Shown one piece after another: positions 3,752-23,649 of a stretch of 64,000 nucleotides of DNA (position 1 is the stretch's first letter; every line of letters begins with the position of its first letter). The notes beneath the pieces were generated by a model. It was not told the DNA's origin and did not search any database. It worked only from the letters and a program-made list of their open reading frames with translations. The translations under genes and the position numbers were made by a program. The DNA comes from Hyphomonadaceae bacterium. Its GTDB lineage: Bacteria; Pseudomonadota; Alphaproteobacteria; Caulobacterales; Hyphomonadaceae. Location of the stretch: the NCBI GenBank assembly GCA_022844345.1, contig JALHLU010000016.1, positions 1 to 64,000 of the forward strand, written 5' to 3'.

Positions 3752-3779
3752 TTCGACCTTCCCGGGCCGGTCATGTAAC
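3752..3779 (+). promoter_or_regulatory. Putative promoter of the TIR-TPR gene at 3808
   Basis: TTCGAC (3752-3757), a 16-base spacer and TGTAAC (3774-3779). The same hexamers at identical spacing stand before three paralogues (16402, 18311, 21922), each about 28 bases from the GTG start. The conservation could also simply reflect recent duplication of the leader. Confidence 0.4.
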
Positions 3780-3807
3780 CCTGCAGCCCATACCAGCGGG
3801 GTTGGGC

Positions 3808-5481
3808 GTGCCGGACATTTTTCTCTCCTACAATCGCGAGGATCAGGGGCGGGCGAAGATGTTCGCCGAGGCGTTCGAGGCGCAGGGCTTCCAAGTCTGG
3901 TGGGATGTCGGCCTCAAGGCCGGAGAAGCCTACGACCAGGTGACGGAGAAGGCCCTGCGCGAGGCCAAGGCTGTCGTTGTGCTGTGGTCGAAGAAGTCGG
4001 TTGAGTCTCGCTGGGTACGCGCCGAGGCGACGCTGGCGGATCGCAACAGGACCCTCGTGCCCTGCATGATCGAGCCTTGCGAACGCCCGATCATGTTCGA
4101 GCTGACGCAGACGGCGGATCTCACGCACTGGCAGGGAGATGCAGGCGACCGGGTGTGGCTGGCGTTCCTGGGCGACGTGAAGCGCTTCGTGGCAAAGGAT
4201 ACGGCCCCGGTAGTTGAGGCCCCTGCCACCCCGCACGCGGCCCCGTCGGTTCAGGAAACGTTGAAGCCCGGTCAAAGCGGCTCGGCGCCTTCGCTGGCGG
4301 TGCTGCCGTTCACCAATCGCTCCGGCTTGCCTGCGGACGATGTGTTCGCAGAAGGCATGGTCGAGGATGTGATCTGGGCGCTGTCACAAGGCGTCAACGT
4401 CCGCGTGCTGGGCTCGGCCGCAACCGCCAATCTCAGCCGGGCTGCGATGGCTGACCTGGCGGCCCTCGGTCGCCAACTTGGCGTGCGCTATCTGCTTGAG
4501 GGAAACGTGCGGCGCGTTGGCGCCAATTTGCGGGTCGTCACGCAGTTGCTTGAGGCGGCGACAGGAGAAATCGTCTGGACTGCGAAACTCGACAGGCCGC
4601 TGGCTGAGTTGGCCGAGTTGCAGGAAGACCTCGTCTCGGAAATCGCGGGCAGCCTTGATGCACAGGTCTATAGTTTGGAGTTGGCGCGCGTGCTGAAGAA
4701 GCCTAGCGACCTGACAGCCTGGGAAGCCGCGACCCGTTCGTTAGGCGCGTACAGCAAGTATGATCTCGCTGACAGGGACCGCGCCATCGATGAAGCCCGA
4801 CGCGCCGTTGCTATCGCACCGGACTATGCACCCGGACAGGCCATGCTCGCCGACGCACTCGCCAATGCCTATATCTCGGGAAGCCCGGATGATCCCACCG
4901 AGGTTAAGCGCATTCGCGCTATCGCGGCCCATGCCCTTGCGCTGGCGCCAAACGACGCTTGGGTGCTCAGTTTTGTTGGACATGCGCTTTGCTTCATCGG
5001 CTTTCCTGAGGAAGGCTTGCGCCATACCGAGCGCGCCGTGCGCAAGGCGCCGGGCAGCGGCCAGTTGCAGTACCAGCATGGCACCGTGCTCTGCTTTCTC
5101 AACCGGATGGAGGAGGCTCTCTCGCACCTCAACACCGGTGAGCGCTTGATGGCGGGTTCACACCTGATGTGGGCGGTGAAAGTGTTTCAATCGATGGCGC
5201 TAGCTGAGCTGGGGCGTTGGGCGGAGGCGGAAGCCGCCATCGATGAAGGCATCAGCCTTATTCCGACATGGGGCTGGTTTCATGACTTCAAGGCGCGGTG
5301 TTGCTTGGCGCTTGGGCGACCGACGGAAGGACGCAAGCATATCCAGACGGCGCGCCAGGTCGGTTTTGACGAGGTGATGTCGGAGCGGTGGTTGCGCCGA
5401 ATGAGCGCGTACAGCCCGATGCTCGAAGCCCACCTCGCCGCCGTCCGCTCCCTCTATGCCGAAACCGAGCCTGGCGCGTGA
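3808..5481 (+). CDS. TIR / TolB-N-like / TPR protein, paralogue A
   Basis: 557-residue cytosolic protein. Residues 1-125 form a TIR_2-type domain (PDIFLSYNRED opening, WWDVGL, VVVLWSKKSVESRWVRAEA); E73 in RWVRAE is at the position of the catalytic glutamate of NAD-cleaving TIR domains. After a Pro/Ala linker (130-160), residues 161-285 match the TolB N-terminal/FlgO-like domain often found in class III cyclase-associated proteins (PSLAVLPFTNRS, GVRYLLEGNVRRVG). Residues from about 305 are degenerate TPRs. No cyclase domain is present. A TTG lies two codons upstream, but GTG 3808 is the start shared by the paralogues. NADase or scaffold role is inference. Confidence 0.85.
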   Translation: MPDIFLSYNREDQGRAKMFAEAFEAQGFQVWWDVGLKAGEAYDQVTEKALREAKAVVVLWSKKSVESRWVRAEATLADRNRTLVPCMIEPCERPIMFELTQTADLTHWQGDAGDRVWLAFLGDVKRFVAKDTAPVVEAPATPHAAPSVQETLKPGQSGSAPSLAVLPFTNRSGLPADDVFAEGMVEDVIWALSQGVNVRVLGSAATANLSRAAMADLAALGRQLGVRYLLEGNVRRVGANLRVVTQLLEAATGEIVWTAKLDRPLAELAELQEDLVSEIAGSLDAQVYSLELARVLKKPSDLTAWEAATRSLGAYSKYDLADRDRAIDEARRAVAIAPDYAPGQAMLADALANAYISGSPDDPTEVKRIRAIAAHALALAPNDAWVLSFVGHALCFIGFPEEGLRHTERAVRKAPGSGQLQYQHGTVLCFLNRMEEALSHLNTGERLMAGSHLMWAVKVFQSMALAELGRWAEAEAAIDEGISLIPTWGWFHDFKARCCLALGRPTEGRKHIQTARQVGFDEVMSERWLRRMSAYSPMLEAHLAAVRSLYAETEPGA

Positions 5482-5521
5482 GGACTGCGGTATCGGTCGG
5501 GCGGACCGAGCGACTGGATAG

Positions 5522-5636
5522 GGGCCCCGACTTCACGCCCTTCCGGCATTGTTACCAGTGGCAGCCGCACTCGTAAGTTGCTGGTCGCTCCCGCCCTGCT
5601 GATCAGGCGCGACATCGCCCAAGAACGGACACTCGG
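5522..5636 (+). repeat. Dispersed island repeat, type B copy 1
   Basis: GGGGCCCCGACTTCACGCCC, TTCCGGCATTGTTACCAGTG, then CCCGCCCTGCTGATCAGGC and ACATCGCCCAAGAACGG. The type B blocks recur at 10211 and 18171. It shares the GGGCCCC start and CGCCCAA end with type A but has a different middle. Confidence 0.75.
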
Positions 5637-5670: not shown

Positions 5671-8406
5671 CTACCTCGTGGTCGCCCAAATCTTTGCGCA
5701 CGGATGCGGCGCATTGCGATCGAGAATAGGGAAGCGCGCGTAATCCGCTTCGGTCAGCTGCGTCACGCCGATCCTCTCCAACATGTCGCAGGCCTCGATG
5801 ACCTGCTCGCTCGCCGGTGCAAATAAAACCCTTGGGACCGCCCACAGTTGCGCGGCGCCGTCGCTACCGTCACTCAGGAAACGCCCGCCGTCGGGAAGGA
5901 AGACCGCAGCCGATCCCGTCTGTTCAAAAGTCGCGAGCGGCCTCTCCTCTCCGATCCGCCACAGCTTCATCCCGCCATCCACCACGGTCAGAAACAGATC
6001 CCCGCGGGAATTGAAGACGACGAACGGAATACCGCGCGAATCTGCCGGGAAGACCGCGAGCGGTTTATCGCTCACGATGCTCCACAACTTTACTCTGCTC
6101 TCCAACGATCCCGTAAGGAAACGCTGGCCGTCGGGATGGAAGGCGACAGACCGAACCTCGCGGATCGCACCATCGGTTTGCGCATCGAACGACGCGAGCG
6201 GCTCGGCCTCACCAATTCGCCACAGTTTCGCAGTGCCCTCACCGCCTCCGGTAATGAAGAGCTCGCCACCTGGCTGCCAGGACAGGGAAAGGATCTCAGC
6301 TTCGTGCGCCTTCAGGCTAGACAGCGGAGTCTGCTCGCCGATCCGCCACAGATTCACAACTCCATCCTCGTCACCGGCAAGAAACCGCTCTCCGTCCGCA
6401 TGAAAAGCCACCGCGTTCACGTAGAAATTGCCTTGCTGGAAAATCTGCGAAGGCTTGTCGGTCCCCAGCCGCCACAGGGTGGCAGCTTGGAATGAGCCGG
6501 CGACGAACTCCTCTCCATTGGGACTAAAGGCAAGAGAGGTGGGCCGTCCTGGATAGGTTTCCAGCGGCGCCTCTTCCCCGACTCTCCATAGCTTCATCGT
6601 TTCGTCCGACGAACCGGTCAGGAACCTCTCCCCGTCACGGTTTACGGCGATTGCCGTGACATCTTCCACATGTCCTGTGAAAGTCGCCGACGGTTTATCC
6701 CCGGCAATCCGCCATGCCTTCGTTCCGTCGCGACCGCCCGTGAAAAAAAGTTCGCCGTCAGGATGCAGAGAGACGGCGAAAACCTCGCCTTCGTGTCCAG
6801 CAAATGTGTTCAGCAGTTTTCGGTCGCTAAGCCGCCACAACATCGCGGCACCGTTCTCCGACGCGGTGAGAAGCCGCTCGCCGTCAGGGTGAAACGCAAC
6901 ATCGACAGCGCCTGCGTGCCCCGCGAATGTCGCTAGAGACTGCTCTGTCCCGATACGCCACAACGTCGCTGTTCCGTCCGCTGCCCCGGTAATAAACTGC
7001 TCGCCGTCGCGATGCAGGGCGATAGAATGCACAGGGCCGTGAGACGCATCGAAGCTCGCCAGCGGCGCCTCCTCGCCAATCCGCCAAAGCTTTGCCGAAC
7101 CGTCGTTTGACGCCGTCAGGAACCGCTCGCCGTCGGGATGGAAGACGATCGCGTAGGGAACGGAAGTGTGTCCCGCGAATGTCGCCAAGGGGAAATCACT
7201 CCCCAGCCGCCACAGCAATACATCCCCTTCGGCAAGGCCGGTCAGAAAACGCTCGCCGTCAGGATGAAACGCGGCGGAATAGGCAGCCGCCAGCGTCGGC
7301 ATCGCCACTGGCTGTTCCTCGCCGATCCGCCATAGCTTCGGCTTTCGATCCTCTGAAAGAGTCAGAAAGCGCTCCCCATCCGGATGCAAGGTGACGGAAA
7401 AGATGTTGCCTTCATGTCCCTCGAACGTCGCCAAGGCAGCCTGCTCGCCGAGTCGCCAAAGCTTCACTGATCCGTCGCCCGACCCCGTCAAAAAGCGCTG
7501 GCCGTCGGGAAGCAGAGCAATGGACGAGACATAACCTTCGTGTCCATGAAACGTCCCGCCCAGCCGGTTGTGCGTGAGCCCCCGCGCCAGAGCGTTACGC
7601 GCAGCATCAAAACCCGATGGTCTCATCAATGCTTCGACCCACCCGGCTTTCGCCGCCGGATCGCCATAGAGCGCCACAAGCATCGCCTTAGCGTAATCGC
7701 CTTCATCGAACAGAGTATTTGCCTCGCGCGCGAACAGTCGCGAAGTCCGCTCGCTCGCATCGACATAGTTGCTTGCGGCGAACCAGCCGCCGGTCAGCGC
7801 CGCCGCGACCAGCACCAAGCCCGATGCGAACAGCGCCTGCGCCCGTCGTAGCTCCGCACGGCGTCGCCGCACTTCCCGCTGGCGCAGGTCGTCGTAGCCA
7901 ACATCGAGCATCCCCGCGATCAGCCGGAGCGCGGCGTCCTCGCGCCCGAACTTGCGTACGTCCACTGCTAGCGGTTCGGCCGGACCGCCGGTCGCAGTCA
8001 CCTTCAGCCCCGGAGGAAAGCATTCGGTCGCGTTGCCTTGTACATCTGGTGCCCCATGCGGTGTGCCGTCGACGATCAGCGCGAACACCCGATGCTCGCG
8101 GCCGAGGCGCTTGAACGCCTCGATCTCCTGGTTCACCCATTTGGATTTCGCCGAGCGCGGAGAACACACTACGATCAGAGCGTCGCTCGCCTTTAGCGCC
8201 GCCTCGATCTTCGGCCCCAGCTCGTGCGCCGCGCCGAGTTCCTCCTCGTCGCGGAACATCCTGCCAAGCCGCCTGAGGTTCTGGGCCCCCACCAGCCGCT
8301 TCGGCACCCGATATCGCTCAAGAGCGCGATGCAGCCACACGCCCCACTCATGGTCCGCGTGGGCATACGAAATGAACGCCCGATAGGTGAAACTGAACTC
8401 GGCCAT
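5671..8406 (-). CDS. TIR domain / membrane segment / 14-repeat WD40 protein
   Basis: 911 residues. The N-terminal TIR domain (about 8-110) opens with FRAFISYAHADHE after the first residues and carries the glutamate of KWVNQE at E94. An Arg-rich stretch (about 178-189) precedes one hydrophobic segment (191-213, ALFASGLVLVAAALTGGW), suggesting an inner-membrane anchor with TIR in the cytosol. From about residue 285 I count 14 WD40 repeats, each with a PDGERFLT-type turn and an LWR ending, enough for two seven-bladed propellers. Convergent with paralogue A; the gap holds repeat B1. The exterior propellers could sense a ligand, but this is inference. Confidence 0.85.
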   Translation of the reverse strand: MAEFSFTYRAFISYAHADHEWGVWLHRALERYRVPKRLVGAQNLRRLGRMFRDEEELGAAHELGPKIEAALKASDALIVVCSPRSAKSKWVNQEIEAFKRLGREHRVFALIVDGTPHGAPDVQGNATECFPPGLKVTATGGPAEPLAVDVRKFGREDAALRLIAGMLDVGYDDLRQREVRRRRAELRRAQALFASGLVLVAAALTGGWFAASNYVDASERTSRLFAREANTLFDEGDYAKAMLVALYGDPAAKAGWVEALMRPSGFDAARNALARGLTHNRLGGTFHGHEGYVSSIALLPDGQRFLTGSGDGSVKLWRLGEQAALATFEGHEGNIFSVTLHPDGERFLTLSEDRKPKLWRIGEEQPVAMPTLAAAYSAAFHPDGERFLTGLAEGDVLLWRLGSDFPLATFAGHTSVPYAIVFHPDGERFLTASNDGSAKLWRIGEEAPLASFDASHGPVHSIALHRDGEQFITGAADGTATLWRIGTEQSLATFAGHAGAVDVAFHPDGERLLTASENGAAMLWRLSDRKLLNTFAGHEGEVFAVSLHPDGELFFTGGRDGTKAWRIAGDKPSATFTGHVEDVTAIAVNRDGERFLTGSSDETMKLWRVGEEAPLETYPGRPTSLAFSPNGEEFVAGSFQAATLWRLGTDKPSQIFQQGNFYVNAVAFHADGERFLAGDEDGVVNLWRIGEQTPLSSLKAHEAEILSLSWQPGGELFITGGGEGTAKLWRIGEAEPLASFDAQTDGAIREVRSVAFHPDGQRFLTGSLESRVKLWSIVSDKPLAVFPADSRGIPFVVFNSRGDLFLTVVDGGMKLWRIGEERPLATFEQTGSAAVFLPDGGRFLSDGSDGAAQLWAVPRVLFAPASEQVIEACDMLERIGVTQLTEADYARFPILDRNAPHPCAKIWATTR

Positions 8407-8599: not shown

Positions 8600-9991
8600 T
8601 CACTGTGAGAGGAGCACTTTAAGCTTTGCCATGGCAGGTTCGATATTACGGCTGTAACGATCCAGTTCCGCCAATTCCGCAGTATCCGTCGGGCGCAGGT
8701 TCGCCATTCTCGGCGCCACCGAGTCCAGCCGCGACGAAGCCATGAAGGCCACGATGTCTTCAATGGCGCCCCACCGCAGGCGACAGGGGAGTTCTTCCGC
8801 CATCATATGAAGCCAACCAACCGGATCGCTCGGCATTGGCACGGGCACGCAGATCGCATTTTTTTCCGCATCGTCTGTGCGGGTGGCTTCGACATGGGCA
8901 ATGAGGGCTGCGCTGAAAACCGGCTGGCACAGGCGCAGGTTTTGGAGGCAAATCTGATTTCCGGCAAACACCGGGCGGGCCGCCGCACCCACGATGGCGG
9001 AAGCGCTGCAATCGATGTGAACCGTATCGCAGTCCGTTGGAATAGCCCCCTTTTCGAGCACGATCTGGTGCGCTTCGATCGCGACGACGCGACCAAGCCG
9101 GACAATGTTGCGGATGCTTCGCAACACCGCGAGTTCGCCTTCGGTGACCGTGGCGCAGTGATGCATCGTCGGCTTGATGGTGGGATCTAGCCGCAGAACA
9201 GCGCCGCGTGCTTCAAGTCGATCAAATACGTCGTCGATGGATGATGCCTGCTCGATGCACTCAACCTCATCAGCGATGAAGCGCGCCACATCGATAAGAC
9301 GATCCTGGCCGGCCTGGAAATTCGCCCGGTTGAACATCCAAGAGTCGCGCGGCACGATCCAAGTGATTGTGTCCGGCGAAGCGCCATTGGCGAGCAGCCA
9401 TAGGCATGCATCCATTCCGGTTTTCCCTGCGCCGATAATCACAATGCGGTGGCCTGCCCTGGCCAGCTTCGGCAGATCATTTATGGGCGCACAGATCATG
9501 CCAGGCGCAACGTTATAAGTGGGCGTCCGTGTCGCGGGAATGGATGGACTATGGATGGTGGCATCGACGATCTTGCCAGCCTTGACGGGCCGCGCCGCGC
9601 CGCTGACGAGCGAGACGACTTCACCGGTCGGTCGATACTCGCTCATCGGGACGAACTGAACCCGGCCCGTCGGCAGCATCTGCTGCTGCATAACCGTTTC
9701 AAAATAGCTGACGACCTCAGCGCCAGAAGCGAGTTCGTCGAGCCCCGCATTGAATCCAAAACTGTCTTTGTGCCCCGAGCCTAACGGGCGCGAGTTCACC
9801 CCGTAATTGGCAGAAGGCTGGTGCAGGCGCACAAAGGGATAGACGTCATTCCAATGGCCGCCTACGCGGTGGCGCCGGTCGACGAGGGCGATGGTCGCGT
9901 CAGTCTCGTTTAGAAGCTGGTCGGCGAAGGCCAATCCCGCAGCTCCGGCGCCCACGACCAGATAGTCAGCTTCGATTGGCTCAAGTCTCAT
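8600..9991 (-). CDS. FAD/NAD(P)-binding flavoprotein (monooxygenase-like)
   Basis: 463 residues. The N-terminus is a classical dinucleotide-binding fold, ADYLVVGAGAAGLAFADQLL with the GxGxxG glycines near residues 13-18, and a second Rossmann motif RIVIIGAGKTGMDACLWLL follows mid-protein. This double arrangement is typical of flavin-containing monooxygenase and pyridine-nucleotide oxidoreductase relatives. GHWNDVYPFVRLHQPS follows the first motif, as in flavoprotein hydroxylases. The FMO fingerprint FxGxxxHxxx(Y/F) is not obvious, so substrate and even oxygenase activity are uncertain. It lies 193 bases upstream of the TIR-WD40 gene on the same strand, so co-transcription is possible but the repeat separates them. 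No signal peptide. Confidence 0.75.
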   Translation of the reverse strand: MRLEPIEADYLVVGAGAAGLAFADQLLNETDATIALVDRRHRVGGHWNDVYPFVRLHQPSANYGVNSRPLGSGHKDSFGFNAGLDELASGAEVVSYFETVMQQQMLPTGRVQFVPMSEYRPTGEVVSLVSGAARPVKAGKIVDATIHSPSIPATRTPTYNVAPGMICAPINDLPKLARAGHRIVIIGAGKTGMDACLWLLANGASPDTITWIVPRDSWMFNRANFQAGQDRLIDVARFIADEVECIEQASSIDDVFDRLEARGAVLRLDPTIKPTMHHCATVTEGELAVLRSIRNIVRLGRVVAIEAHQIVLEKGAIPTDCDTVHIDCSASAIVGAAARPVFAGNQICLQNLRLCQPVFSAALIAHVEATRTDDAEKNAICVPVPMPSDPVGWLHMMAEELPCRLRWGAIEDIVAFMASSRLDSVAPRMANLRPTDTAELAELDRYSRNIEPAMAKLKVLLSQ

Positions 9992-10395: not shown

Positions 10396-12354
10396 ATGGC
10401 GGACGTTTTCCTGAGTTACAAACGCGAGGAGCGTGTCCAGGTTGAGCGGCTTGCCAATGCGTTGCGAGGTCTTGGGCTCACCGTGTGGTTCGATGCGAGC
10501 CTCGCTGCCGGAGATGCTTTCTCCGACGAAATTGATCGCGAGGTTCGCAGTGCGCGGGTGGTGGTCGCTTGCTGGTCGCCGCTGGCCGCGGCGTCGCAAT
10601 GGGTAAAGGCCGAGGCTCTAATTGGCTTCAGCAAGCAAAACCTTATCTCAGCCTATGTCGTCGGTCCGGATGACTTCGAACCGCCTGTTCCGTTCAGCAG
10701 TCTGCACATGGAGGACATGCGCGCGTGGGCGCTACGGCCAAGTGCGCGCGATCCGGCCTGGCTCTCCGTTTTGCGCGGGGTAGGCAGCCTTGTGGATCGC
10801 ACTGACATTGCCGATTGGGGCGCGCTCGGACCTGATGCAAGCGCATCTCAAATCGAGGCGTGGCTAGCGGCGCATGCTGCGACAAGCCCCCTCGTGATCG
10901 ATGCCGAAAGCTTTCTGCAGCAGCGCGAAGCTGCGAGCCGTGAACGCGCCGCCGCCGAAATCGCTGCGCGTGAACGCATCGAGCGCATGCGCTTGGAAAA
11001 GGCCGCCGCCGAACAGGCAGTGCGCGATGAACAGAATCGTGACCATGCAGAAAGGCGCATTCGCGAGGCAGAGCAGCGCGCGGCAACCGCAAAGAGAACC
11101 GCCTCACGGACGCGCCGCGTACTCGTCGTCGGCGGCGGAATAGCATTAGTCGGCGGCGGAGCATGGGCGGGCTTACTTTCCGAGCAGCCCTTCCTGCGCA
11201 ACACTTTTCCCACCGCGGATCTGGCGTCCGCCGCAACGTTTCGCTTGCGGCCAAGGTTGCGTTTGAAGTGCAACGCGACGGTCACCCATCTCGCGTTCAG
11301 CCCGGATGGGGCGCGTCTCATCACGCAATTCGTGCCTTATGATTCTAGTCCACAGCAGAACCCTCAGCTGTGGGATACCGCATCCGGTCGCCTGATCGCG
11401 ACGCTCAGTGGCACGCGGCCCATTTTCAATGCTGACGGAACACGCCTGGTTACGACAGATGCAGACTTGAGACTGTGGGATGGCGTCAGCGGCAGTCAAA
11501 TTGCCGAGCTGCCAGCCCGCGCCTACCACGCCGACGCTATATTTAGTCCAGATGGCAAACGCGTCGTGATCAGCGCCTCCGCGACGCGCGAAGCGACAGT
11601 GTGGGACGCAGCTTCAGGACAGGAAATTGCCACCCTGGACGGCGGGCACGACATTCAGGGCATGGAATTCGGGATCAACGCCGTCGCGTTCAGCCCCGAC
11701 AGCTCGCACTTGGCCACAGCCGGCGGGGCGCTAAGCGTTTGGAACACACGGTCCTGGGCTAAACTCAGTACTCCGGCACGCGGGCAGTACAGCTATAGGA
11801 GTGTCGAGTTCAGCCCCGATGGAAGGCGAATAGTCACTTCGTCATCGGACACTCAGACTTGGGACATCGCAGGCGGTGCCGTCATTCCGGCGAGGTCCCG
11901 CAACGGTTTCTCAGAAAGCGCGGCCTTCAGCCCGGACGGCGCCCGCATCGTCATGCTCATCGGTTCCGACATCGAGGTTTGGGACGCGGGTCTAGAGCAG
12001 AACATCGCCAAGATTACAAATATCGGCGCCGACCAGGTGGCTTTCAGCCCAGATGGAAATCTCATCATCGCGCGCCTGTACCGGTATAAGTTGTTTGACC
12101 AGCGCACGGGCAAAATGTTCGGCCCGCGAAGCGACCTGAGGGGCGCGCCGTCATTCAGCCCAGACGGCGCACAGGTGATTTTCGCTACTCCTGGGAGTAG
12201 CACCGCGCAGCTCTGGAGCACGGCGTCCGGCCACGAGCTTGCGGTCCTTCGTGGGCACGGCACCTACGTATCCAGCGCCGCTTTCAGCCCGGACGGCAAA
12301 AGCATCGTGACAGGAGCTGCCGATGGGGCGGCGCTCATTTGGGATATCGAGTAA
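10396..12354 (+). CDS. TIR / coiled coil / membrane segment / WD40 protein
   Basis: 652 residues. TIR domain at 1-125 (MADVFLSYKREE, VWFDASL, VVVACWSPLAAASQWVKAE) with the putative catalytic E73, matching the numbering of the TIR-TPR paralogues although the sequence is much diverged. Residues about 172-240 form a highly charged Ala/Glu/Arg coiled coil, followed by a Gly-rich hydrophobic segment (VLVVGGGIALVGGGAWAGLL) and then WD40-type blades with repeated FSPDG turns to the C-terminus. The frame is open back to 10156 but that part overlaps repeat B2, so ATG 10396 is chosen. Likely a membrane-tethered TIR with a sensor propeller; this is inference. Confidence 0.85.
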   Translation: MADVFLSYKREERVQVERLANALRGLGLTVWFDASLAAGDAFSDEIDREVRSARVVVACWSPLAAASQWVKAEALIGFSKQNLISAYVVGPDDFEPPVPFSSLHMEDMRAWALRPSARDPAWLSVLRGVGSLVDRTDIADWGALGPDASASQIEAWLAAHAATSPLVIDAESFLQQREAASRERAAAEIAARERIERMRLEKAAAEQAVRDEQNRDHAERRIREAEQRAATAKRTASRTRRVLVVGGGIALVGGGAWAGLLSEQPFLRNTFPTADLASAATFRLRPRLRLKCNATVTHLAFSPDGARLITQFVPYDSSPQQNPQLWDTASGRLIATLSGTRPIFNADGTRLVTTDADLRLWDGVSGSQIAELPARAYHADAIFSPDGKRVVISASATREATVWDAASGQEIATLDGGHDIQGMEFGINAVAFSPDSSHLATAGGALSVWNTRSWAKLSTPARGQYSYRSVEFSPDGRRIVTSSSDTQTWDIAGGAVIPARSRNGFSESAAFSPDGARIVMLIGSDIEVWDAGLEQNIAKITNIGADQVAFSPDGNLIIARLYRYKLFDQRTGKMFGPRSDLRGAPSFSPDGAQVIFATPGSSTAQLWSTASGHELAVLRGHGTYVSSAAFSPDGKSIVTGAADGAALIWDIE

Positions 12355-12540: not shown

Positions 12541-12677
12541 GAACGGACCTCGGCTCAAAAGCGTCATTCGAGACGGGTCTCGGCTGCACCGAGTGACCTG
12601 CTACGCGATCGGTCGTTGACCAGCTGCCGCGGCACAGTTCAGTGTCGGTGCGTCCTGCGCTGCGGAGCCGGTCGACG

Positions 12678-15065: not shown

Positions 15066-15153
15066 GGGTTTCAACCGTCATTGGCGGTGGAAAAACTCCT
15101 CTGTTGTGACGTCTGAGGGGCTGTGGTCTGTTCCGTTCCAGGGAGCGCGGACA

Positions 15154-16272: not shown

Positions 16273-16401
16273 GCGGCATTGAGAAGGATTGAACTGAGAC
16301 TCGTTCCGACACGACGCGTCCCCTCGACGATACGCTAGCCTCTCGATGGCGTGTACCGCCCATAAGACGCCGTTCGTAATCTTCCGGTATCGACGACGAG
16401 A

Positions 16402-16429
16402 TTCGACCTTTCCCGATAGCTCCTGTAGT
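16402..16429 (+). promoter_or_regulatory. Putative promoter of the TIR-TPR gene at 16458
   Basis: TTCGAC (16402-16407), 16 bases, TGTAGT (16424-16429), at the same distance from GTG as in the paralogues. The preceding gap 16273-16380 has only a GTTCGTAATCTTC trace of the repeat's end, without the body. Confidence 0.4.
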
Positions 16430-16457
16430 CCTGCTGTCCATACCAGCGGGGTCGGGC

Positions 16458-18128
16458 GTGCCGGACATCTTCCTCTCCTACAATCGCGAGGACCAGGCGC
16501 GGGCGAAGCTCTTCGCCGAAGCGTTCCAAGCCCATGGCCTAGACGTCTGGTGGGATACCGCGCTGACGCCGGGTGAAGCCTACGACCAGGTCACGGAGAA
16601 GGCGCTGAAGACGGCGAAGGCCGTGGTGGTACTGTGGTCGTCACGCTCGGTGGAGAGCCGCTGGGTGCGTGCCGAGGCGACGCTGGCGGATCGCAACAAG
16701 ACGCTCGTGCCCTGCATGATCGAACCGTGTGAACGGCCCATCATGTTCGAGCTGACGCAGACGGCGGAGCTGAGCCACTGGCAGGGCGATGCGATGGACA
16801 AGGCGTGGCTCGCCTTCCTCGCAGGTGTCAGGCGCTTCGTGGCGAAGGAGGCAGCGCCGGCGGTTGCGGCCCCGGCTGCTCCAATTGCAGCGCCGACCGT
16901 CCAGGAAACGCTGAAGCCTGGCCAGAGCGGGTCTGCGCCGTCGCTGGCTGTGCTGCCCTTCACGAACCGCTCCAGCCTGCCCGAGGACGAGGTGTTCGCC
17001 GAGGGCATGGTAGAGGACGTGACGTCCGCGCTCTCGCAGGGCGTCAATGTCCGTGTGCTGGGCGCGACCGCCACTGCGAACCTGAGCCGCGCGGCGATCA
17101 CCGATCTGGCGGCATTGGGACGCCAGCTTGGCGTGCGCTACCTGCTTGAAGGCAATGTGCGCCGCGTGGGCGCCAACCTGCGTGTCGCCACACAGCTGCT
17201 GGAGGCGGCGACCGGCGAAATTGTCTGGACCGCGAAGTTCGACCGCCCCCTGACCGAACTTGCCGAGCTTCAGGAAGAGCTGGTCACGGAGATCGCCGCC
17301 AGTCTCGATACTCAGGTCTACAGCCTTGAGATGGAACGGGCGCTGAGGAAGCCCGGCGACATCACCGCCTGGGAGGCGGTGGCGCGAGCCATGTCCGCCT
17401 ATCGCAAGTGGGACGCCGCCGCGCTGGTAGAGGGCGTCGAGGAAGCTCGGCGGGCTGTCGCCATCGCGCCTGACTATGCGCCGGGACACGCTATGCTCGC
17501 CTACGCTCTTTCCCACGCTTATCTTGGCAGTCCAGACGATCCGGCAGAGGTCCAGCGCATCCGCGCTATCGCGGAACGCGCTCTTACCCTGGCGCCAGAC
17601 GACGCCTCGGTCCTCTGCTACGTTGGGGGTGCGCTCTGCAATATCGGATATCCGGATGATGGCGTGCGCTACACCGGGCGCGCCGTGCGCAAGGCGCCCG
17701 GTAGCGGCTTGATGCACTACTGCCATGGTGTCGCATGCTATATTGTCAACCGACCGGAAGAGGCCCTTTCGCACCTCAAGGCGGCCGAGCGTCTCTGGCC
17801 CGGCTCGCACATGATGTGGTTGTTGATAACGTGGCAGTCGGCCGCCCATCGCGACCTAGGGCGTCTGGCGGAGGCGGAAGCTGCTCGCGATCGCAGCATT
17901 GGCCTTAATCCAAACCATGGCTTCGATCTCGCCTACAAGGCGGTTTTGTCTGTGCTCCTTGGACGGGAAGACGAAGGACGCAGTCTCATCCAGACGACTA
18001 GCCGACTGGGCTGGGACATGGCGCAGGTGGAGCGCATATGGCGCCGCGTCCACCCAAAAAGTCCGACGCTCGAAGCCGACATCGCCATCGTTCACGCGCT
18101 CTACGCGGCGACGGAGGCGCGCGCGTGA
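16458..18128 (+). CDS. TIR / TolB-N-like / TPR protein, paralogue B
   Basis: 556 residues, same order as paralogue A: TIR (1-125, E73 in RWVRAE, with WSSRSVES replacing WSKKSVES), Pro/Ala linker, TolB-N-like domain (PSLAVLPFTNRSSLPEDEVF; GVRYLLEGNVRRVG) and TPRs from about 305. The TPR part closely matches paralogues D and E (AWEAVARAMSAYRKWDAAAL, RRAVAIAPDYAPGHAMLAYA). GTG start with AGCGGGG ahead. The C-terminal LEADIAIVHALYAATEARA block is shared by four paralogues. Enzymatic output, if any, must come from TIR; the TPRs probably bind a partner protein, which is inference. Confidence 0.85.
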   Translation: MPDIFLSYNREDQARAKLFAEAFQAHGLDVWWDTALTPGEAYDQVTEKALKTAKAVVVLWSSRSVESRWVRAEATLADRNKTLVPCMIEPCERPIMFELTQTAELSHWQGDAMDKAWLAFLAGVRRFVAKEAAPAVAAPAAPIAAPTVQETLKPGQSGSAPSLAVLPFTNRSSLPEDEVFAEGMVEDVTSALSQGVNVRVLGATATANLSRAAITDLAALGRQLGVRYLLEGNVRRVGANLRVATQLLEAATGEIVWTAKFDRPLTELAELQEELVTEIAASLDTQVYSLEMERALRKPGDITAWEAVARAMSAYRKWDAAALVEGVEEARRAVAIAPDYAPGHAMLAYALSHAYLGSPDDPAEVQRIRAIAERALTLAPDDASVLCYVGGALCNIGYPDDGVRYTGRAVRKAPGSGLMHYCHGVACYIVNRPEEALSHLKAAERLWPGSHMMWLLITWQSAAHRDLGRLAEAEAARDRSIGLNPNHGFDLAYKAVLSVLLGREDEGRSLIQTTSRLGWDMAQVERIWRRVHPKSPTLEADIAIVHALYAATEARA

Positions 18129-18170: not shown

Positions 18171-18290
18171 TGGGCCCCGACTTCACGCCCTTCCGATGAT
18201 GTTACCAATGGCGGCGGCGCTCGGAAATTGCCGGTCGCTTCTGCCCTGCTAATCAGGCTGGAGCTCGCCCAATAAGCGCCATTCGTAATG
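18171..18290 (+). repeat. Dispersed island repeat, type B copy 3
   Basis: TGGGCCCCGACTTCACGCCC, TTCCGATGATGTTACCAATG, CGGAAATTGCCGGTCGCTTC, TGCCCTGCTAATCAGGCTGG, AGCTCGCCCAATAAGCGCCA, TTCGTAA. It runs directly into the leader of paralogue C. Confidence 0.8.
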
Positions 18291-18310
18291 TTCGCAAACC
18301 CGAGGCAAGA

Positions 18311-18338
18311 TTCGACCTTTCCGGACCGGTCATGTAAC
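18311..18338 (+). promoter_or_regulatory. Putative promoter of the TIR-TPR pair at 18367-21743
   Basis: TTCGAC (18311-18316), 16 bases, TGTAAC (18333-18338). It would drive both paralogue C and the overlapping paralogue D. Confidence 0.4.
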
Positions 18339-18366
18339 CCTGCCAACCATACCAGCGGGGTCGGGC

Positions 18367-20061
18367 GTGCCGGACATTTTTCTCTCCTACAATCGCGAGG
18401 ATCAGGCCCGGGCGAAGCTGTTCGCGGAGGCGTTCGAGCGTCAAGGCTTCAAGGTCTGGTGGGATGTGGGCCTGCGCACCGGCGAGGCCTATGATCAGGT
18501 GACCGAGAAGGCTTTGCGCGAGGCCAAAGCGGTTGTGGTGTTGTGGTCGAAACGTTCGGTCGAGAGCCGCTGGGTCCGCGCAGAGGCGACGCTGGCGGAT
18601 CGCAACAAGACGCTGGTCCCCTGCATGATCGAGCCATGCGAGCGACCCATCATGTTCGAGCTGACCCAGACGGCGGAGCTCTCGCACTGGCAGGGCGATG
18701 CTAGCGACAAGGCGTGGACGGCATTTCTCAGCGACGTGAAGCGCTTCGTGGCGAAGGAAGAAGCGCCAGCGGCTGCGGCTCCGGCCACTCCGCTTGCAGC
18801 GCCGACCGCGCCGAACATCGAGGCTGCCGCCCCGCCGGCACGCATGGGCGAGCGCGGTGAGCGGCCGTCCCTCGCCATCATGCCGTTCGCTAACCGCTCT
18901 GGTCTGAGCGAGGACGATGTGCTGGCCTACGGCATGGTCGAGGACATTGTCTCGGCGATCTCGCTGAGCCCAGACATCCGCGTGCTCGCGTCCAGCTCGA
19001 CCCTGGCCTGGGCAGGAAAGGCGACAGACCTGCGTGTCGTTGGCCGCGATCTCGGCGTCCGCTACTTGCTGGAAGGCAATGTGCGACGGGTCGGGCCAAA
19101 CCTTCGTGTCACCGTCCAGCTGGTCGAGGCCGAGACGGGCGCGATCCTGTGGACGCAGAAGTTCGACCGTCCGTTGTCCGAGCTGTCCGCGCTGCAGAAA
19201 GAGCTGGTCACCGAGGTCGCCGCCCATCTCGGTGTGCAGGTGCAAAACATCGAGATGGAACGTGCGCTGAAGAAGCCGGGCGACATCACCGCATATGAGG
19301 CCATGCAGCGGGTCAACTCGATCTACGCCCAGCTGAGCACGGATCGGCTGCCGATTGCTGTGGCCGAGGCGCGGCGCGCGGTGGCGATTGCACCGGACTA
19401 TGGTGCGGCGCATGCCACCCTAGCCATCACCCTCTCGACGCTAAACTTCTGGACCAGTGACGATGATGCACGGAAGCTGGAAGCCCGGCATCACCTCGAT
19501 CGAGCTCTGGCTCTCGATCCCAAGGATATGCAGGTGCTCTGGCGCTGCGCAGCGTCGCTCACTTATCTCGGGCACCCGGAAGAGGCGCTGCTTCACGCGG
19601 AGCGCGCGGTAGACCTCTATCCCAATGCGCACCTGGGTTGGCGCGCGCTAGGGGCGGCGCTACTTGGCCTGGCGCGGGCCGATGAGGCGCTCGCCTGTTT
19701 CGACACAGAAGAAAAGCAATCACCGCGCAATTTCGTGCTCTATGCCACGCTGGGGCGTCGGGCCATGGCGCACTTCCATGCGGGTCGATCGGAACAAGCG
19801 ATCGAGGCGATCGACCGGGCCTTCCGGCTGAATTCCGACTATCCGATAAATCTCGTCGTCCGCGCCGCGCTTTGCAGCATCGCCGGGCGGTCCGATGACG
19901 CCCGCGACTGTATTCGTCGTCTGCGCAAGCTTGAGCCCGACACCTCGATCGACTTCCATGCGGGCAGATGCGCGATCCTGATGCCCCCAGGGTCCAGCGC
20001 TGTCCTTATTGGCGCTTTTCGAAGGTCGTGGAGCGAGACGCCGACGGAGCGGATCACATGA
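18367..20061 (+). CDS. TIR / TolB-N-like / TPR protein, paralogue C (diverged C-terminal part)
   Basis: 564 residues. The TIR domain (1-125, E73) is nearly the same as in A, B, D and E, but the rest differs: the linker reads APNIEAAAPPARMGERGERP, the TolB-N-like domain begins SLAIMPFANRSGLSEDDVLA, and the TPR tail is unrelated at the end (DTSIDFHAGRCAILMPPGSS onwards) instead of the shared LEADIA..ALYAATE ending. Such mosaic conservation fits gene conversion or recombination limited to the TIR end. Its stop overlaps the ATG of paralogue D by four bases (ATGA at 20058), so the two are translationally coupled and may act as a complex. Confidence 0.85.
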   Translation: MPDIFLSYNREDQARAKLFAEAFERQGFKVWWDVGLRTGEAYDQVTEKALREAKAVVVLWSKRSVESRWVRAEATLADRNKTLVPCMIEPCERPIMFELTQTAELSHWQGDASDKAWTAFLSDVKRFVAKEEAPAAAAPATPLAAPTAPNIEAAAPPARMGERGERPSLAIMPFANRSGLSEDDVLAYGMVEDIVSAISLSPDIRVLASSSTLAWAGKATDLRVVGRDLGVRYLLEGNVRRVGPNLRVTVQLVEAETGAILWTQKFDRPLSELSALQKELVTEVAAHLGVQVQNIEMERALKKPGDITAYEAMQRVNSIYAQLSTDRLPIAVAEARRAVAIAPDYGAAHATLAITLSTLNFWTSDDDARKLEARHHLDRALALDPKDMQVLWRCAASLTYLGHPEEALLHAERAVDLYPNAHLGWRALGAALLGLARADEALACFDTEEKQSPRNFVLYATLGRRAMAHFHAGRSEQAIEAIDRAFRLNSDYPINLVVRAALCSIAGRSDDARDCIRRLRKLEPDTSIDFHAGRCAILMPPGSSAVLIGAFRRSWSETPTERIT

Positions 20062-21743
20062 CCGCCGCGCCCGACATCTTCCTCTCCTACAACCGAGAAG
20101 ACCAGGCGCGGGCGAAGGAGTTCGCCGAGGCGTTTGAGCGCCAAGGCCTCAAGGTCTGGTGGGATATGGGTCTGCGCGCTGGCGAGGCTTATGACGAGGT
20201 GACGGAGACGGCGTTGCGGACGGCGAAGGCCGTCGTCGTGCTCTGGTCGAAGAAATCCGTTGCGTCCCGCTGGGTGCGCGCCGAAGCCACGCTCGCGGAT
20301 CGCAACAAGACGTTAGTGCCGTGCATGATTGAGCCTTGCGAGCGCCCGATCATGTTCGAACTGACCCAGACGGCAGAGCTGAGCCACTGGCAGGGTGATG
20401 CGGGCGACAAGGCGTGGACAGCGTTCCTTTCCGATGTGAAGCGCTTCGTGGCGAAGGAAGCCGCACGAGCGGTTGCGGCTCCGACCATTCCGCTCGCCGC
20501 GCCGACCGTTGAGGAAACCCTCAAGCCTGGCCAGAGCGGGTCCGCGCCGTCGCTGGCGGTGTTGCCGTTCACCAACCGCTCCAGCCTGCCCGAGGACGAG
20601 GTGTTCGCCGAAGGCATGGTGGAGGATGTGACGTCCGCTCTTTCACAAGGCGTCAACGTCCGCGTGCTCGGGTCAATGGCTACTGCGAATTTGAGCAGGA
20701 CGGCGATTACAGACCCCGCCGCCCTGGGGCGCCAACTGGGCGTGCGCTATCTGCTGGAGGGCAGTGTCCGCCGTGTCGGAGCAAACCTGCGGGTCGCTAC
20801 GCAGCTACTGGAAGCGGCGACAGGCGAAATCGTCTGGACCGGGAAGTTTGACCGTCCGTTGGTGGAGCTAGCTGAGCTTCAGGAGGAGTTGGTCACCGAC
20901 ATCGCCGCCAGTCTCGATACGCAGGTCTACACCCTTGAGATGGAGCGGGCGCTGAAGAAGCCCGGCGACATCACTGCCTGGGAGGCGGTGGCGCGAGCCG
21001 TGTCCGCCTATCGCAAGTGGGACGCTGCCGCGCTAGCGGAGGGCATCGCGGAAGCCCGGCGGGCCGTCGCCATCGCGCCGGACTACGCGCCGGGGCACGG
21101 CATGCTGGCCCTCGCTCTCGCCGCCGCTTACTTTGTCAGTCCATACGATGACAATCCGGCAGAGGTTCAACGCATTCGCGCCATCGCGGGACGCGCTCTT
21201 ACGCTGGCGCCGGACGACGCCTCGATTCTCGGCCACGTCGGCAATGCTCTCTGCTTTGTCGGCCATCCGGAGGAAGGCGAGCGCCACACCGGGCGCGCTG
21301 TGCGCAAGGCGCCGGGCAGTGGGTTGGCGCAAGTACAACATGGCTTGGCATGCGTGATGCTCAACCGTCCTGAGGAGGGGCTGTCGCACCTCAAACTGGC
21401 AGAGCGCCTGAGCCCCGGCTGGCACCTGATGTGGACGGCGAAGAGTTGGCAGTCCGCTGCGCACCGTGCGATGGGGCGCTGGGCGGAGGCGGACGCAGCC
21501 ATCGATGAGAGCATTCGCCTCAATCCGACAAACGTGGGCGGTCAACTCGACAAAGCGCTTCTTCGTGCGCGCCTTGGACACCACGCCGAAGCCCACAGAC
21601 ATATCGAGACAGCGCGGCGGCAGGGAATGGACCTGGCGCAGGCGGAGCGCATATGGCGCCTCGTCTGGGCAAACGATCCGACGCTTGAAGCTGACATTGC
21701 CATCGTTCGTGCGCTCTACGCCGCGACGGAGGCGGGAGCGTGA
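20058..21743 (+). CDS. TIR / TolB-N-like / TPR protein, paralogue D
   Basis: 561 residues. It starts at ATG 20058 (MTAAPDIFLSYNRED) inside the stop region of paralogue C; the frame is open upstream to 19968 but that part lies in paralogue C. TIR at 4-129 with the catalytic-position glutamate in RWVRAE (E76, shifted by the three extra residues), SVASRWV replacing SVESRWV. TolB-N-like domain and TPRs closely follow B and E. Only paralogue without the TTCGAC/TGTAAC leader, consistent with expression from the paralogue C promoter. Confidence 0.85.
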   Translation: MTAAPDIFLSYNREDQARAKEFAEAFERQGLKVWWDMGLRAGEAYDEVTETALRTAKAVVVLWSKKSVASRWVRAEATLADRNKTLVPCMIEPCERPIMFELTQTAELSHWQGDAGDKAWTAFLSDVKRFVAKEAARAVAAPTIPLAAPTVEETLKPGQSGSAPSLAVLPFTNRSSLPEDEVFAEGMVEDVTSALSQGVNVRVLGSMATANLSRTAITDPAALGRQLGVRYLLEGSVRRVGANLRVATQLLEAATGEIVWTGKFDRPLVELAELQEELVTDIAASLDTQVYTLEMERALKKPGDITAWEAVARAVSAYRKWDAAALAEGIAEARRAVAIAPDYAPGHGMLALALAAAYFVSPYDDNPAEVQRIRAIAGRALTLAPDDASILGHVGNALCFVGHPEEGERHTGRAVRKAPGSGLAQVQHGLACVMLNRPEEGLSHLKLAERLSPGWHLMWTAKSWQSAAHRAMGRWAEADAAIDESIRLNPTNVGGQLDKALLRARLGHHAEAHRHIETARRQGMDLAQAERIWRLVWANDPTLEADIAIVRALYAATEAGA

Positions 21744-21767: not shown

Positions 21768-21900
21768 CTGAATGGCCGTTGTGGGCCCCGTGTCTGCCCT
21801 AACCCAGAATGTGGCGATCCGGCAGGGTCGATCCACTTCGGTCATCCGATGATGACGCAGCGTTGTGACGGGTCATCGCCCAAGAACCGTCATTCGTAAC
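21768..21900 (+). repeat. Dispersed island repeat, type A copy 6
   Basis: TGGCTGAATGGCCGTTGTGG, GGCCCCGTGTCTGCCC, CCAGAATGTGGCGATCCGGC, GGGTCGATCCACTTCGGTCA, GACGCAGCGTTGTGACGGGT, CATCGCCCAAGAACCGTCAT, TCGTAAC. It runs into the leader of paralogue E. Confidence 0.78.
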
Positions 21901-21921
21901 TTTGAGTCCTCCAGAGCCGGA

Positions 21922-21949
21922 ATCGACGTTTCCCCGAGGCTCCTGTAGT
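21922..21949 (+). promoter_or_regulatory. Putative promoter of the TIR-TPR gene at 21979
   Basis: ATCGAC (21922-21927, one base off the others), 16 bases, TGTAGT (21944-21949). Confidence 0.35.
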
Positions 21950-21978
21950 CCTTCGACCTATTGCCAGCGGGGTTGGGC

Positions 21979-23649
21979 GTGCCGGACATTTTCCTTTCCT
22001 ACAATCGCGAGGACCAAGACCGGGCGAAGGTCTTCGCCGAGGCGCTGATCGCGCAGCGTTTCGACGTTTGGTGGGATGTCGGCCTGCGGACAGGGGAGGC
22101 CTATGACCAGGTGACCGAAAAGGCCCTGAAGACCGCGAAAGCCGTTATCGTGCTGTGGTCGAAGAAGTCGGTCGAGTCCCGCTGGGTGCGCGCCGAGGCG
22201 ACGCTGGCCGACCGTAACAAGACGCTCGTGCCCTGCATGATCGAGGCGTGCGAGCGGCCCATCATGTTCGAGCTGACTCAGACGGCGGAGCTCACCCACT
22301 GGCAGGGCGCGCCGGATGATCGGGCCTGGTTGGCCTTCCTTTCCGACGTGAAGCGCTTTGTTGCGAAGGAAGCAGCGCCCATCGTGGCGGCCCCGACTGC
22401 CCCACTCGCCGCCCCGACCGTTGAGGAAACACTGAAGCCCGGACAGAGCGGGTCTGCGCCATCGCTGGCGGTGCTGCCGTTCACCAACCGCTCCCATCTG
22501 CCCGAGGACGAGGTGTTCGCCGAAGGCATGGTGGAGGATGTGATTTCCGCCCTCACCCAGGGCGTCAATGTCCGCGTGCTGGGATCGACGACGACGGCCA
22601 ACCTGAGCCGTGCAGCGATTATGGATCTCCCAGCGCTCGGACGCCAGCTGGGCGTGCGCTATCTGCTGGAGGGCAATGTCCGCCGTGTCGGCGCGAACCT
22701 GCGAGTCACCACCCAGCTGCTGGAAGCGGAGACCGGCGCATCGATTTGGACAGCGAAATTCGACCGTCCTCTGAGCGAGCTGGCCGAGCTTCAGGAGGAG
22801 CTGGTCACGGACATCGCCGGCGCCCTCGAAACTCGGGTCTACAGCCAGGAAATCGAGCGCGCGCTGAAGAAGCCCGGCGACATCACCGCCTGGGAGGCGG
22901 TGGCGCGAAGCCTTTCCGCCTATCGCAAGTTGGACGCCGCCGCGCGGGCTAACGGCATTGAGGAAGCCCGGCGCGCTGTCGCCATCGCGCCGGACTACGC
23001 GCCGGGGCACGCCATGCTCGCCTACGCTCTTTCCCACGCTTATCTTAGCAGTCCAGACGATCCGGCAGAGGTCCAGCGCATCCGCGCTATCGCGGAGCAT
23101 GCGCTGACCTTGGCGCCGGATGACGCCTCTGTTCTCTGCTTCGTTGGGCGTGCGCTCAGCGTTGTCGGCTATCCAGAGGAAGGCGTGCGCTATACCGGGC
23201 GCGCTGTGCGCAAGGTGCCAGGCAGCGGCCTGTTGCAGCTTTACCATGGCGTCTCTTGCGTGATGCTCAACCGGCCCGAGGAGGCGCTGTCGCACCTCAA
23301 GACGGCGGAGCGCCTGATGCCCGGCTCGCACCTGATGTGGATGGTGAAGGGGTGGCGGGCCCCGGCGGATCGGGAGATGGGCCGATGGGCGGAAGCGGAC
23401 GCAGCAATCGATGAGTGCATCAGCCTGAATCCGTCGTTAGAATACGGCTACGTCGTCAAAGCTCACACCTCTATGCACCTTGGACGCGACGCCGACGCGC
23501 GCAGGCAGATCGAGACAGCGCTCCGGTTGGGAATGGACCTAACGCAAGCGGAGCGCTTATGGCGTCGCCTCAACCCAAATAGCCCGAGGCTTGAAGCTGA
23601 CATCGCCACCATCCGCGCGCTCTACGCAGCTACGGAGCCTGGAGCGTGA
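21979..23649 (+). CDS. TIR / TolB-N-like / TPR protein, paralogue E
   Basis: 556 residues, same architecture; TIR 1-125 with E73 in RWVRAE, and IEACERPIMFELTQTAELTH where the others have IEPCERP. TolB-N-like domain (SLAVLPFTNRSHLPEDEVF) and TPR block as in B and D; a stretch around 22984-23090 is almost base-identical to paralogue B, showing recent duplication or conversion. A TTG at 21961 is in frame, but GTG 21979 is the start position shared by the family. Last TIR gene of the array. Confidence 0.85.
   Translation: MPDIFLSYNREDQDRAKVFAEALIAQRFDVWWDVGLRTGEAYDQVTEKALKTAKAVIVLWSKKSVESRWVRAEATLADRNKTLVPCMIEACERPIMFELTQTAELTHWQGAPDDRAWLAFLSDVKRFVAKEAAPIVAAPTAPLAAPTVEETLKPGQSGSAPSLAVLPFTNRSHLPEDEVFAEGMVEDVISALTQGVNVRVLGSTTTANLSRAAIMDLPALGRQLGVRYLLEGNVRRVGANLRVTTQLLEAETGASIWTAKFDRPLSELAELQEELVTDIAGALETRVYSQEIERALKKPGDITAWEAVARSLSAYRKLDAAARANGIEEARRAVAIAPDYAPGHAMLAYALSHAYLSSPDDPAEVQRIRAIAEHALTLAPDDASVLCFVGRALSVVGYPEEGVRYTGRAVRKVPGSGLLQLYHGVSCVMLNRPEEALSHLKTAERLMPGSHLMWMVKGWRAPADREMGRWAEADAAIDECISLNPSLEYGYVVKAHTSMHLGRDADARRQIETALRLGMDLTQAERLWRRLNPNSPRLEADIATIRALYAATEPGA

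What the first reader, a model, noticed from the sequence alone, without database searches (positions are those of the whole stretch)
3752..23649. Array of seven TIR-domain proteins of three architectures in 20 kb
Five TIR/TolB-N-like/TPR paralogues, a TIR/TM/14-blade WD40 protein and a TIR/coiled-coil/TM/WD40 protein occur together. All keep a Glu at the position used by NAD-cleaving TIR domains. None of the partners of known TIR defence systems (Thoeris ThsA, SIR2, CBASS or STING-like proteins) is visible in the window. The cluster could be a new multi-input NAD-cleaving signalling or immune system with cytosolic (TPR) and membrane (WD40) sensors, or an expanded regulatory family. The sequence shows the architectures; the function is inference.
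Basis: partly seen in the sequence, partly recalled or inferred. Interest (0 to 1): 0.82.

Follow-up and report, generated by a model that had tools for sequence, protein, structure and literature searches.

The report
TIR receptor array with distant effector
A bacterium carries a cluster of seven proteins that join a probable NAD-cutting domain to different sensor domains, and a likely membrane partner for them sits elsewhere in its genome, a layout that resembles families of immune receptors but has not been tested in the laboratory.

Summary
Seven TIR proteins lie at 3.8-23.6 kb: five TIR/TolB-N/TPR, one TIR/TM/WD40, one TIR/coiled-coil/TM/WD40, all with the catalytic-position Glu. They are not isolated: the genome has 25 TIR_2 matches, and tandem copies recur in 12 of 50 related loci. 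The TolB-N/TPR half is a CadC-like sensor chassis that elsewhere carries a cyclase or DNA-binding domain.

No partner was found in the window, but the genome has a candidate. A 673-aa protein (SLOG-fold domain plus SLATT-like membrane part) sits on contig C9 between a TIR/TolB-N/TPR gene and a TIR/FGE gene. Homologues lie beside TIR/TolB-N/TPR or TIR/WD40 genes in other genomes, including a Novosphingobium megaplasmid found by searching from the partner.

Best reading: a Thoeris-like NAD-derived signalling system with many sensors and one membrane effector in trans. NADase activity, messenger, effector action and a phage role are inferred. At least six relatives have the TIR proteins without the partner, and 11 of 17 partner genomes have no TIR next to it. 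A preprint on bacterial TIR systems could not be read, so novelty is provisional.

The parts
3802..5481 (+). P0001: TIR/TolB-N/TPR (start GTG 3808 or TTG 3802)
   Evidence: Pfam TIR_2 E 8e-22, TPR; A1 alignment
5671..8406 (-). P0002: TIR/TM/WD40
   Evidence: Pfam; TM; 31% identical over 936 columns to the TIR-WD40 protein beside SLOG-SLATT in G091
10396..12354 (+). P0003: TIR/coiled-coil/TM/WD40 (ORF open from 10156; internal ATG 10396; coiled coil judged by eye)
   Evidence: Pfam, TM 322-340, start
16458..18128 (+). P0004: TIR/TolB-N/TPR
18367..20061 (+). P0005: TIR/TolB-N/TPR with a sensor half of another lineage
20058..21743 (+). P0006: TIR/TolB-N/TPR, ATGA overlap with P0005; AlphaFold2 model pLDDT 90.2
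21979..23649 (+). P0007: TIR/TolB-N/TPR
3696..3821 (+). conserved leader of P0001 (about 105 nt noncoding plus start of gene)
   Evidence: A6; R1 107 bits, by construction
16348..16471 (+). conserved leader of P0004
   Evidence: R1 105 bits, by construction
18256..18380 (+). conserved leader of P0005
   Evidence: R1 105 bits, by construction
21867..21992 (+). conserved leader of P0007
   Evidence: R1 94 bits, by construction
24203..24277 (-). tRNA-Gln, conserved right border of a variable region; not part of the system

Best explanation
The cluster is a bank of receptors that share one type of TIR enzyme and differ in their sensor. A cue binds the TolB-N/TPR half (cytosolic, CadC-like) or the WD40 propeller (membrane-anchored), the TIR domains assemble, and they cut NAD+ to an ADP-ribose-type messenger using the conserved Glu. 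The messenger binds the SLOG domain of a SLOG-SLATT membrane protein encoded on another contig (C9:220686-222707). That protein permeabilises the inner membrane and stops the cell, most likely as a response to phage. Shown by computation: the domains, the Glu, the recurring tandem copies, a shared TIR with exchanged sensors, and a non-random association of SLOG-SLATT with TIR genes. Inferred: catalysis, the messenger, SLOG binding, membrane action, the cue, and the immune role.
For: (1) TIR: the modelled TIR part fits SPARTA TIR (Z 16.8, 1.8 A over 125) and SARM1 TIR (Z 15.6, 2.1 A over 120). The TIR profile's best solved relatives are 7uxr, AbTIR, PdTIR, RPV1, RUN1 and SARM1, with the Glu aligned in the five alignments printed. 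The Glu is invariant in 22 of 22 TIRs of A5 and 51 of 51 of A3. (2) 12 of 50 loci hold two to five adjacent TIR-bearing ORFs of this family; in L044 and L053 the last copy is cut by the contig end and shows TIR only. (3) Neighbour clustering finds one ~670-730 aa family in 13 loci: 12 of the 50 plus own C9. L036, missed by the gene caller, makes 13 of 50. Gaps from the TIR gene are 104, 85, 13 and 175 bp in L087, L029, L040 and L039; in L032, L051, L054, L056, L058, L064 and L072 the two are about 2-4 kb apart. (4) Partner fold: YpsA Z 15.1, DprA Z 12.8, TRPM2 SLOG Z 8.3; SLATT_1 over cut-off in 1 of 5 tested; four hydrophobic segments. (5) Of 17 SLOG-SLATT genomes, 6 have a TIR gene directly beside it against 0.15 expected; without the three discovery-set genomes 3 of 14 against 0.08, P 6e-5. 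(6) Class survey: the 4 of 385 genomes with contiguous full-length TIR/TolB-N/TPR hits among the listed rows all have SLOG-SLATT (11 of 385 overall), P 3.7e-7, or 1.3e-5 without the own genome. (7) Searched from the partner side, plasmids give 3 records: Novosphingobium RL4 (98% covered, 49.5% identical) has a divergent TIR/TolB-N/TPR beside it; Caballeronia SBC2 (34% covered) has a TIR gene and then a gene annotated WD40 whose first 897 aa match nSTAND1; SBC1 was not opened. (8) G412 repeats the split layout: three copies on C86, SLOG-SLATT with TIR-WD40 on C71. (9) The TIR of P0005 is sister to the TIR beside SLOG-SLATT (85% identical, support 0.85), while their sensor halves belong to different lineages.
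Against: No enzyme test. In the family sample at least 8 of 105 genomes have full-length TIR/TolB-N/TPR; six of them (G104, G062, G093, G024, G019, G023) have no SLOG-SLATT, and the association is not significant (2 of 8 against 5 of 97, P 0.088). 11 of 17 SLOG-SLATT genomes have no TIR beside it, two of them no TIR_2 at all. The TIR in L068 has no TolB-N match and that of L067 is broken. Foldseek alone gave no partner match at E 0.001; Pfam (2 relatives), PADLOC and PDB sequence gave none. The highest-Z TIR row is a Hydra Toll-related receptor (Z 17.7). The faster change of the TPR half is not special to the array: TPR/TIR dN ratio 4.4 in single-copy orthologues, 2.3 in the array. The own C9 TIR gene lacks the leader of the window genes. 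PADLOC matches are to the TIR parts only, apart from a WD40-part match of P0002 to a HEAT/ARM model. A viral-contig relative of the partner has no TIR match within about 6 kb.
Confidence: 0.45

Rival explanations
1. Self-contained TIR NADases: each receptor depletes NAD+ itself when triggered, and SLOG-SLATT is an independent or occasional neighbour.
For: TIR fold close to NAD-depleting SPARTA and SARM1 TIRs; at least six relatives have the receptors and no SLOG-SLATT.
Against: Repeated close adjacency to SLOG-SLATT in bins titled Alpha- and Gammaproteobacteria, in three non-discovery genomes and on two plasmids.
Confidence: 0.25
2. Expanded one-component signalling family without a defence role: TIR replaces the cyclase or DNA-binding output on a CadC-like sensor and reports physiological cues.
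For: 10 of 10 scanned non-TIR homologues carry cyclase (6), Trans_reg_C (3) or BTAD (1) on the same chassis; none of the 13 genes from 1981 to 26416 is a full known defence gene.
Against: Tandem copies, patchy full-length presence, decayed copies, and some neighbours typical of conflict systems: SLATT/DUF4231, nSTAND1, TPR-S, FGE.
Confidence: 0.2
3. Scaffold TIRs: the domains only assemble complexes and the Glu is structural.
For: TIR fold rows also include MAL and, at the highest Z, a Hydra Toll-related receptor.
Against: Glu and the Trp four residues before it invariant in 51 of 51, in the column of the AbTIR and PdTIR Glu.
Confidence: 0.08

Closest known systems
Thoeris (TIR plus SLOG or Macro effector)
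   Same: TIR enzyme with a SLOG-bearing partner. PMC11025887 (passages) states that the ThsA SLOG binds a TIR-made cyclic ADPR. Several TIRs per effector in some Thoeris is recalled, from no call.
   Different: Partner is SLOG-SLATT, not SIR2 or Macro; TIRs carry TolB-N/TPR or WD40; cluster and effector at separate loci; the ThcB4 model matches weakly (29 of 220 bits).
TIR/SLATT and SLOG/SLATT conflict systems
   Same: SLATT predicted to be an ADPr-derivative-regulated membrane effector, beside TIR genes (PMC9503650, passages).
   Different: The passage describes 2TM SLATT in firmicute phages; here SLOG is fused to it and the TIRs form receptor clusters.
Cyclase- or Trans_reg_C-TolB_N-TPR proteins and CadC
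   Same: Same sensor chassis.
   Different: Output is TIR; no TM in the five TPR proteins.
TRPM2 channel
   Same: SLOG domain plus membrane part; PMC11025887 (passages) notes that TRPM SLOG-like domains bind ADPR derivatives.
   Different: Only fold-level likeness of the SLOG domain (Z 8.3, 4.0 A over 174); no likeness of the membrane part is shown.

Membership tests
TIR-domain NADases | TIR domain over the family cut-off | tested here: met
   7 of 7 over PF13676 cut-off
TIR-domain NADases | Glu at the catalytic position | tested here: met
   7 of 7 by motif
TIR-domain NADases | NAD+ cleavage | not testable with these tools
   needs purified protein
Thoeris | TIR protein matching a ThsB or ThcB model at its cut-off | tested here: inconclusive
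   NF058526 at most 29 bits, cut-off 220 (P0001, P0003, P0005); ThsB_TIR PF08937 over cut-off for P0002 (42 bits) and marginally for four TPR proteins in the genome search, below it for the TPR proteins in the protein scan
Thoeris | ThsA-type effector (SIR2, Macro or caspase) beside the TIR gene | tested here: not met
   no such PADLOC match in the 13 called genes 1981-26416; C9 partner is SLOG-SLATT
Thoeris | SLOG-type signal-binding domain in the partner | tested here: met
   fold only, for the C9 protein
Thoeris | ADPR-type second messenger | not testable with these tools
   needs assay
SLATT membrane effectors | SLATT or DUF4231 model over cut-off | tested here: inconclusive
   1 of 5 relatives over the SLATT_1 cut-off, own copy below; Caballeronia homologue over the DUF4231 cut-off
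TolB_N-TPR one-component chassis | TolB-N-like domain followed by TPR | tested here: met
   TPR; CadC-like fold; family profile shared with cyclase and Trans_reg_C proteins; PF04052 itself not matched by the window proteins
CBASS TIR-SAVED and SPARTA | SAVED or APAZ/pAgo part | tested here: not met
   matches to those PADLOC models cover only the TIR part

The most novel reading that the evidence does not exclude
A bacterial immune repertoire of many TIR receptors with exchangeable sensors (CadC-like TPR, WD40, FGE) that converge, through one NAD-derived messenger, on a single SLOG-gated SLATT membrane effector encoded at another locus, comparable in logic to NLR networks with helper proteins.
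Probability: 0.3. Interest if true: 0.85.

Novelty: new variant of a known kind. Interest (0 to 1): 0.6.

Why it matters
If true, one small genome holds a receptor network in which sensors are exchanged around a common enzyme and share a membrane effector in trans. This would give a tractable bacterial model for how immune receptor families expand, and a defined candidate for an ADP-ribose-gated bacterial membrane protein.

Tried and rejected
Positive diversification of the TPR sensor: first looked supported (dN/dS TIR 0.11, TolB-N 0.16, TPR 0.40); an orthologue control removed it, although the array as a whole is less constrained (TIR 0.116 against 0.026). Orthologue dS for TPR is saturated (3 of 10 pairs usable).

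Family-level co-occurrence: my first count of 5 full-length genomes gave P 0.035. On rereading I found three more (G024, G019, G023, the last two as two matches in one frame), and P became 0.088. The list was capped, so 8 is a lower bound.

tRNA-borne island: tRNA-Gln, tRNA-Pro and the start of sppA are kept together in 9 of 9 relatives examined (10 fetched, L146 too short). None of the 15 window genes left of tRNA-Gln is found there, apart from a 31% paralogue of the acyl-CoA ligase. Three of the nine have short reach (0.7, 3.5 and 11 kb). No attachment repeat was seen in the window. So: a variable region, not a shown island.

Diversity-generating retroelement by the TIR/FGE genes: no reverse transcriptase recognised by eye among the ORFs to the contig end and no TR/VR-like repeat seen; not exhaustive.

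Co-regulation by the shared leader: the model R1 was built from TIR-gene leaders, so those matches are by construction. The further matches are decayed copies with TIR starts and a 5' half beside unrelated genes. Duplication as a unit is enough to explain it.

Other SLATT proteins in G104 and G062: below cut-off, on contigs without TIR_2. Viral contigs: 14 relatives of the partner; one (L192) covers residues 68-631 at 27% identity, 13 match short SLOG stretches; no TIR match near L192. Plasmids: 538 records match the chassis, none over 80% of the TIR/TolB-N/TPR protein. That nothing in print was found rests on searches. The preprint 10.64898/2025.12.03.692087, which may describe this type, is not held.
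Full report
What is there. The seven ORFs have TIR_2 matches from 3e-13 to 8e-22. Five are TIR/TolB-N/TPR; two are TIR with a membrane segment and WD40 repeats. P0005 and P0006 overlap by ATGA; P0004-P0005 and P0006-P0007 are about 240 and 230 bp apart. Four non-TIR genes lie among them: an FAD/NAD-binding protein (8600-9991), a TPR protein (12642-13706), a protein with a sub-threshold DUF6090 match (13991-14998) and a MetX-like hydrolase (15058-16272).

The genome. The window is C16:1-64000 of a 4.19 Mb assembly with 25 TIR_2 matches, 7 in the window and 18 outside. In 19 other genomes searched the same way the count was 0 to 14. The 18 other ORFs include two more close TIR/TolB-N/TPR genes on C12, a divergent one on C9, two TIR/FGE genes on C9 (Pfam) and, judged by eye only, WD40, MinD/ParA-like and MORN types.

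The TIR enzyme. In the AlphaFold2 model (pLDDT 90.2, pTM 0.71) the TIR part fits a Hydra Toll-related receptor (Z 17.7), SPARTA TIR (Z 16.8) and SARM1 TIR (Z 15.6); rows within 1 of each other are tied. A TIR profile finds 7uxr, AbTIR, PdTIR, RPV1, RUN1 and SARM1, with the Glu aligned in the five alignments printed. Fold and residue are compatible with NADase activity and do not prove it.

The sensor chassis. The TolB-N/TPR half resembles the CadC periplasmic domain (Foldseek). Of ten non-TIR homologues fetched from the class survey nine were scanned, with one from L035: Guanylate_cyc in 6, Trans_reg_C in 3, BTAD in 1, in the TIR's place. The TIR is one output among several on a common sensor. 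The TIR domains of the eight own TIR/TolB-N/TPR proteins fall in one clade of 13 with relatives (support 0.75; about 77-90% identity in the pairs listed). P0005's sensor half groups with L035 (support 0.97), and the C9 sensor is nearest to L034 (88% in TolB-N). In the L028 array the TIR has dS 0.43 while TPR has 1.83, as if TIRs are homogenised and sensors are not.

Tandem copies elsewhere. 12 of 50 related loci have two to five adjacent ORFs of this family: L027, L028, L029, L034, L038, L039, L040, L041, L042, L044, L048, L053. In L044 and L053 the last copy is cut by the contig end and shows TIR only; end copies are cut in L040, L041 and L042 too. Several loci are bins of one project and not independent.

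The partner. Neighbour clustering found a family in 13 loci (12 of 50, plus own C9); L051, L054, L056 and L072 share gene order and count once. The own protein is L087:8687-10708, C9:220686-222707. No Pfam match in 2 scanned, no PADLOC match in 5, no PDB sequence match for the own copy. NCBIfam gives SLATT_1 or SLATT_3 at low score, over cut-off in 1 of 5. The model (pLDDT 87.2) has an N-terminal SLOG fold: YpsA Z 15.1, 2.8 A over 161; DprA Z 12.8; TRPM2 SLOG Z 8.3, 4.0 A over 174. Foldseek alone was not significant. Four hydrophobic segments follow.

Layout. Own C9: TIR/TolB-N/TPR, SLOG-SLATT, TIR/FGE in one direction, then a second TIR/FGE opposite. G091: TIR/TolB-N/TPR, SLOG-SLATT, TIR/WD40, the last 31% identical to P0002. 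G101: a broken TIR, SLOG-SLATT, a 1011-aa TIR ORF. G412: three TIR/TolB-N/TPR within 16 kb on C86, and SLOG-SLATT with TIR-WD40 on C71, the same split as here. G323: two on C176, and SLOG-SLATT beside a TIR gene cut by the contig end on C111. Searching from the partner, the plasmid collection gave three records: Novosphingobium sp. RL4 with a divergent TIR/TolB-N/TPR (own profiles, E 3e-25 and 2e-24) directly beside it; Caballeronia sp. SBC2 with a TIR gene and a gene annotated WD40 (nSTAND1 in the part read) downstream, and a TPR-S gene upstream; the third was not opened.

Statistics and limits. Class sample: among listed rows 4 of 385 genomes have contiguous full-length hits and all four have SLOG-SLATT, which 11 of 385 have; they are its four strongest (P 3.7e-7; 1.3e-5 without the own genome). 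Family sample: at least 8 of 105 full-length, 7 of 105 SLOG-SLATT, 2 shared, P 0.088. Adjacency: 6 of 17, or 3 of 14 without the discovery-set genomes; the expectation is crude. Genomes are related, so the P values are too small.

Against. Six relatives with the receptors lack the partner. 11 of 17 partner genomes lack an adjacent TIR. The TPR-diversification argument failed its control. The C9 TIR gene lacks the leader that precedes four of the five window TPR genes. No other defence gene was found from 1981 to 26416; the rest of the window was not scanned for them.

Literature. All papers were seen as passages only: PMC9503650 (SLATT predicted as an ADPr-derivative-regulated membrane effector; TIR/SLATT in firmicute phages), PMC11025887 (ThsA SLOG binds gcADPR; TRPM SLOG-like domains bind ADPR derivatives), PMC13232231 (RyR-domain phage proteins degrade cADPR signals; a type VI Thoeris exists), PMC7159879, PMC13174449, PMC13142454 (other TIR or TIR-like systems). 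None of the passages describes TIR/TolB-N/TPR with SLOG-SLATT. The preprint by Yirmiya and others was not held.

Verdict. A real, recurrent receptor cluster of a known enzymatic kind, with an unusual sensor and a probable effector in trans whose link is strong at some loci and absent at others; a new variant, interest 0.6.

Noticed in passing
23688-24202: About 515 bp of noncoding DNA left of tRNA-Gln is 96% identical in G091, 82% in G103 and about 80% in part in G092, where a part occurs twice; perhaps a dispersed repeat.
   Followed up: partly
L087:11023-12726 and 12817-14358: Two TIR/FGE-sulfatase proteins side by side on own C9, an architecture recalled from diversity-generating retroelement targets; no RT recognised nearby.
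   Followed up: partly
L136:5387-7489 and L138:6343-8742: RyR-domain proteins beside, or one gene away from, SLOG-SLATT-like genes in two genomes without TIR_2.
   Followed up: no
L185, L186, L188, L087:6468: Decayed leader and TIR-start relics in G104, G098 and own C9, signs of gene turnover.
   Followed up: partly
L031:647-2989, L032, L033, L058, L061: A ~735-1020 aa family with NAD-binding/amine-oxidase matches (L031 scanned) recurs near TIR genes in five loci.
   Followed up: no
8600-9991: FAD/NAD(P)-binding protein between the two WD40 TIR genes; no PADLOC match, role unknown.
   Followed up: no
L192:5758-7932: A SLOG-SLATT-like 725-aa ORF on a viral contig, with no TIR match within about 6 kb.
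   Followed up: partly
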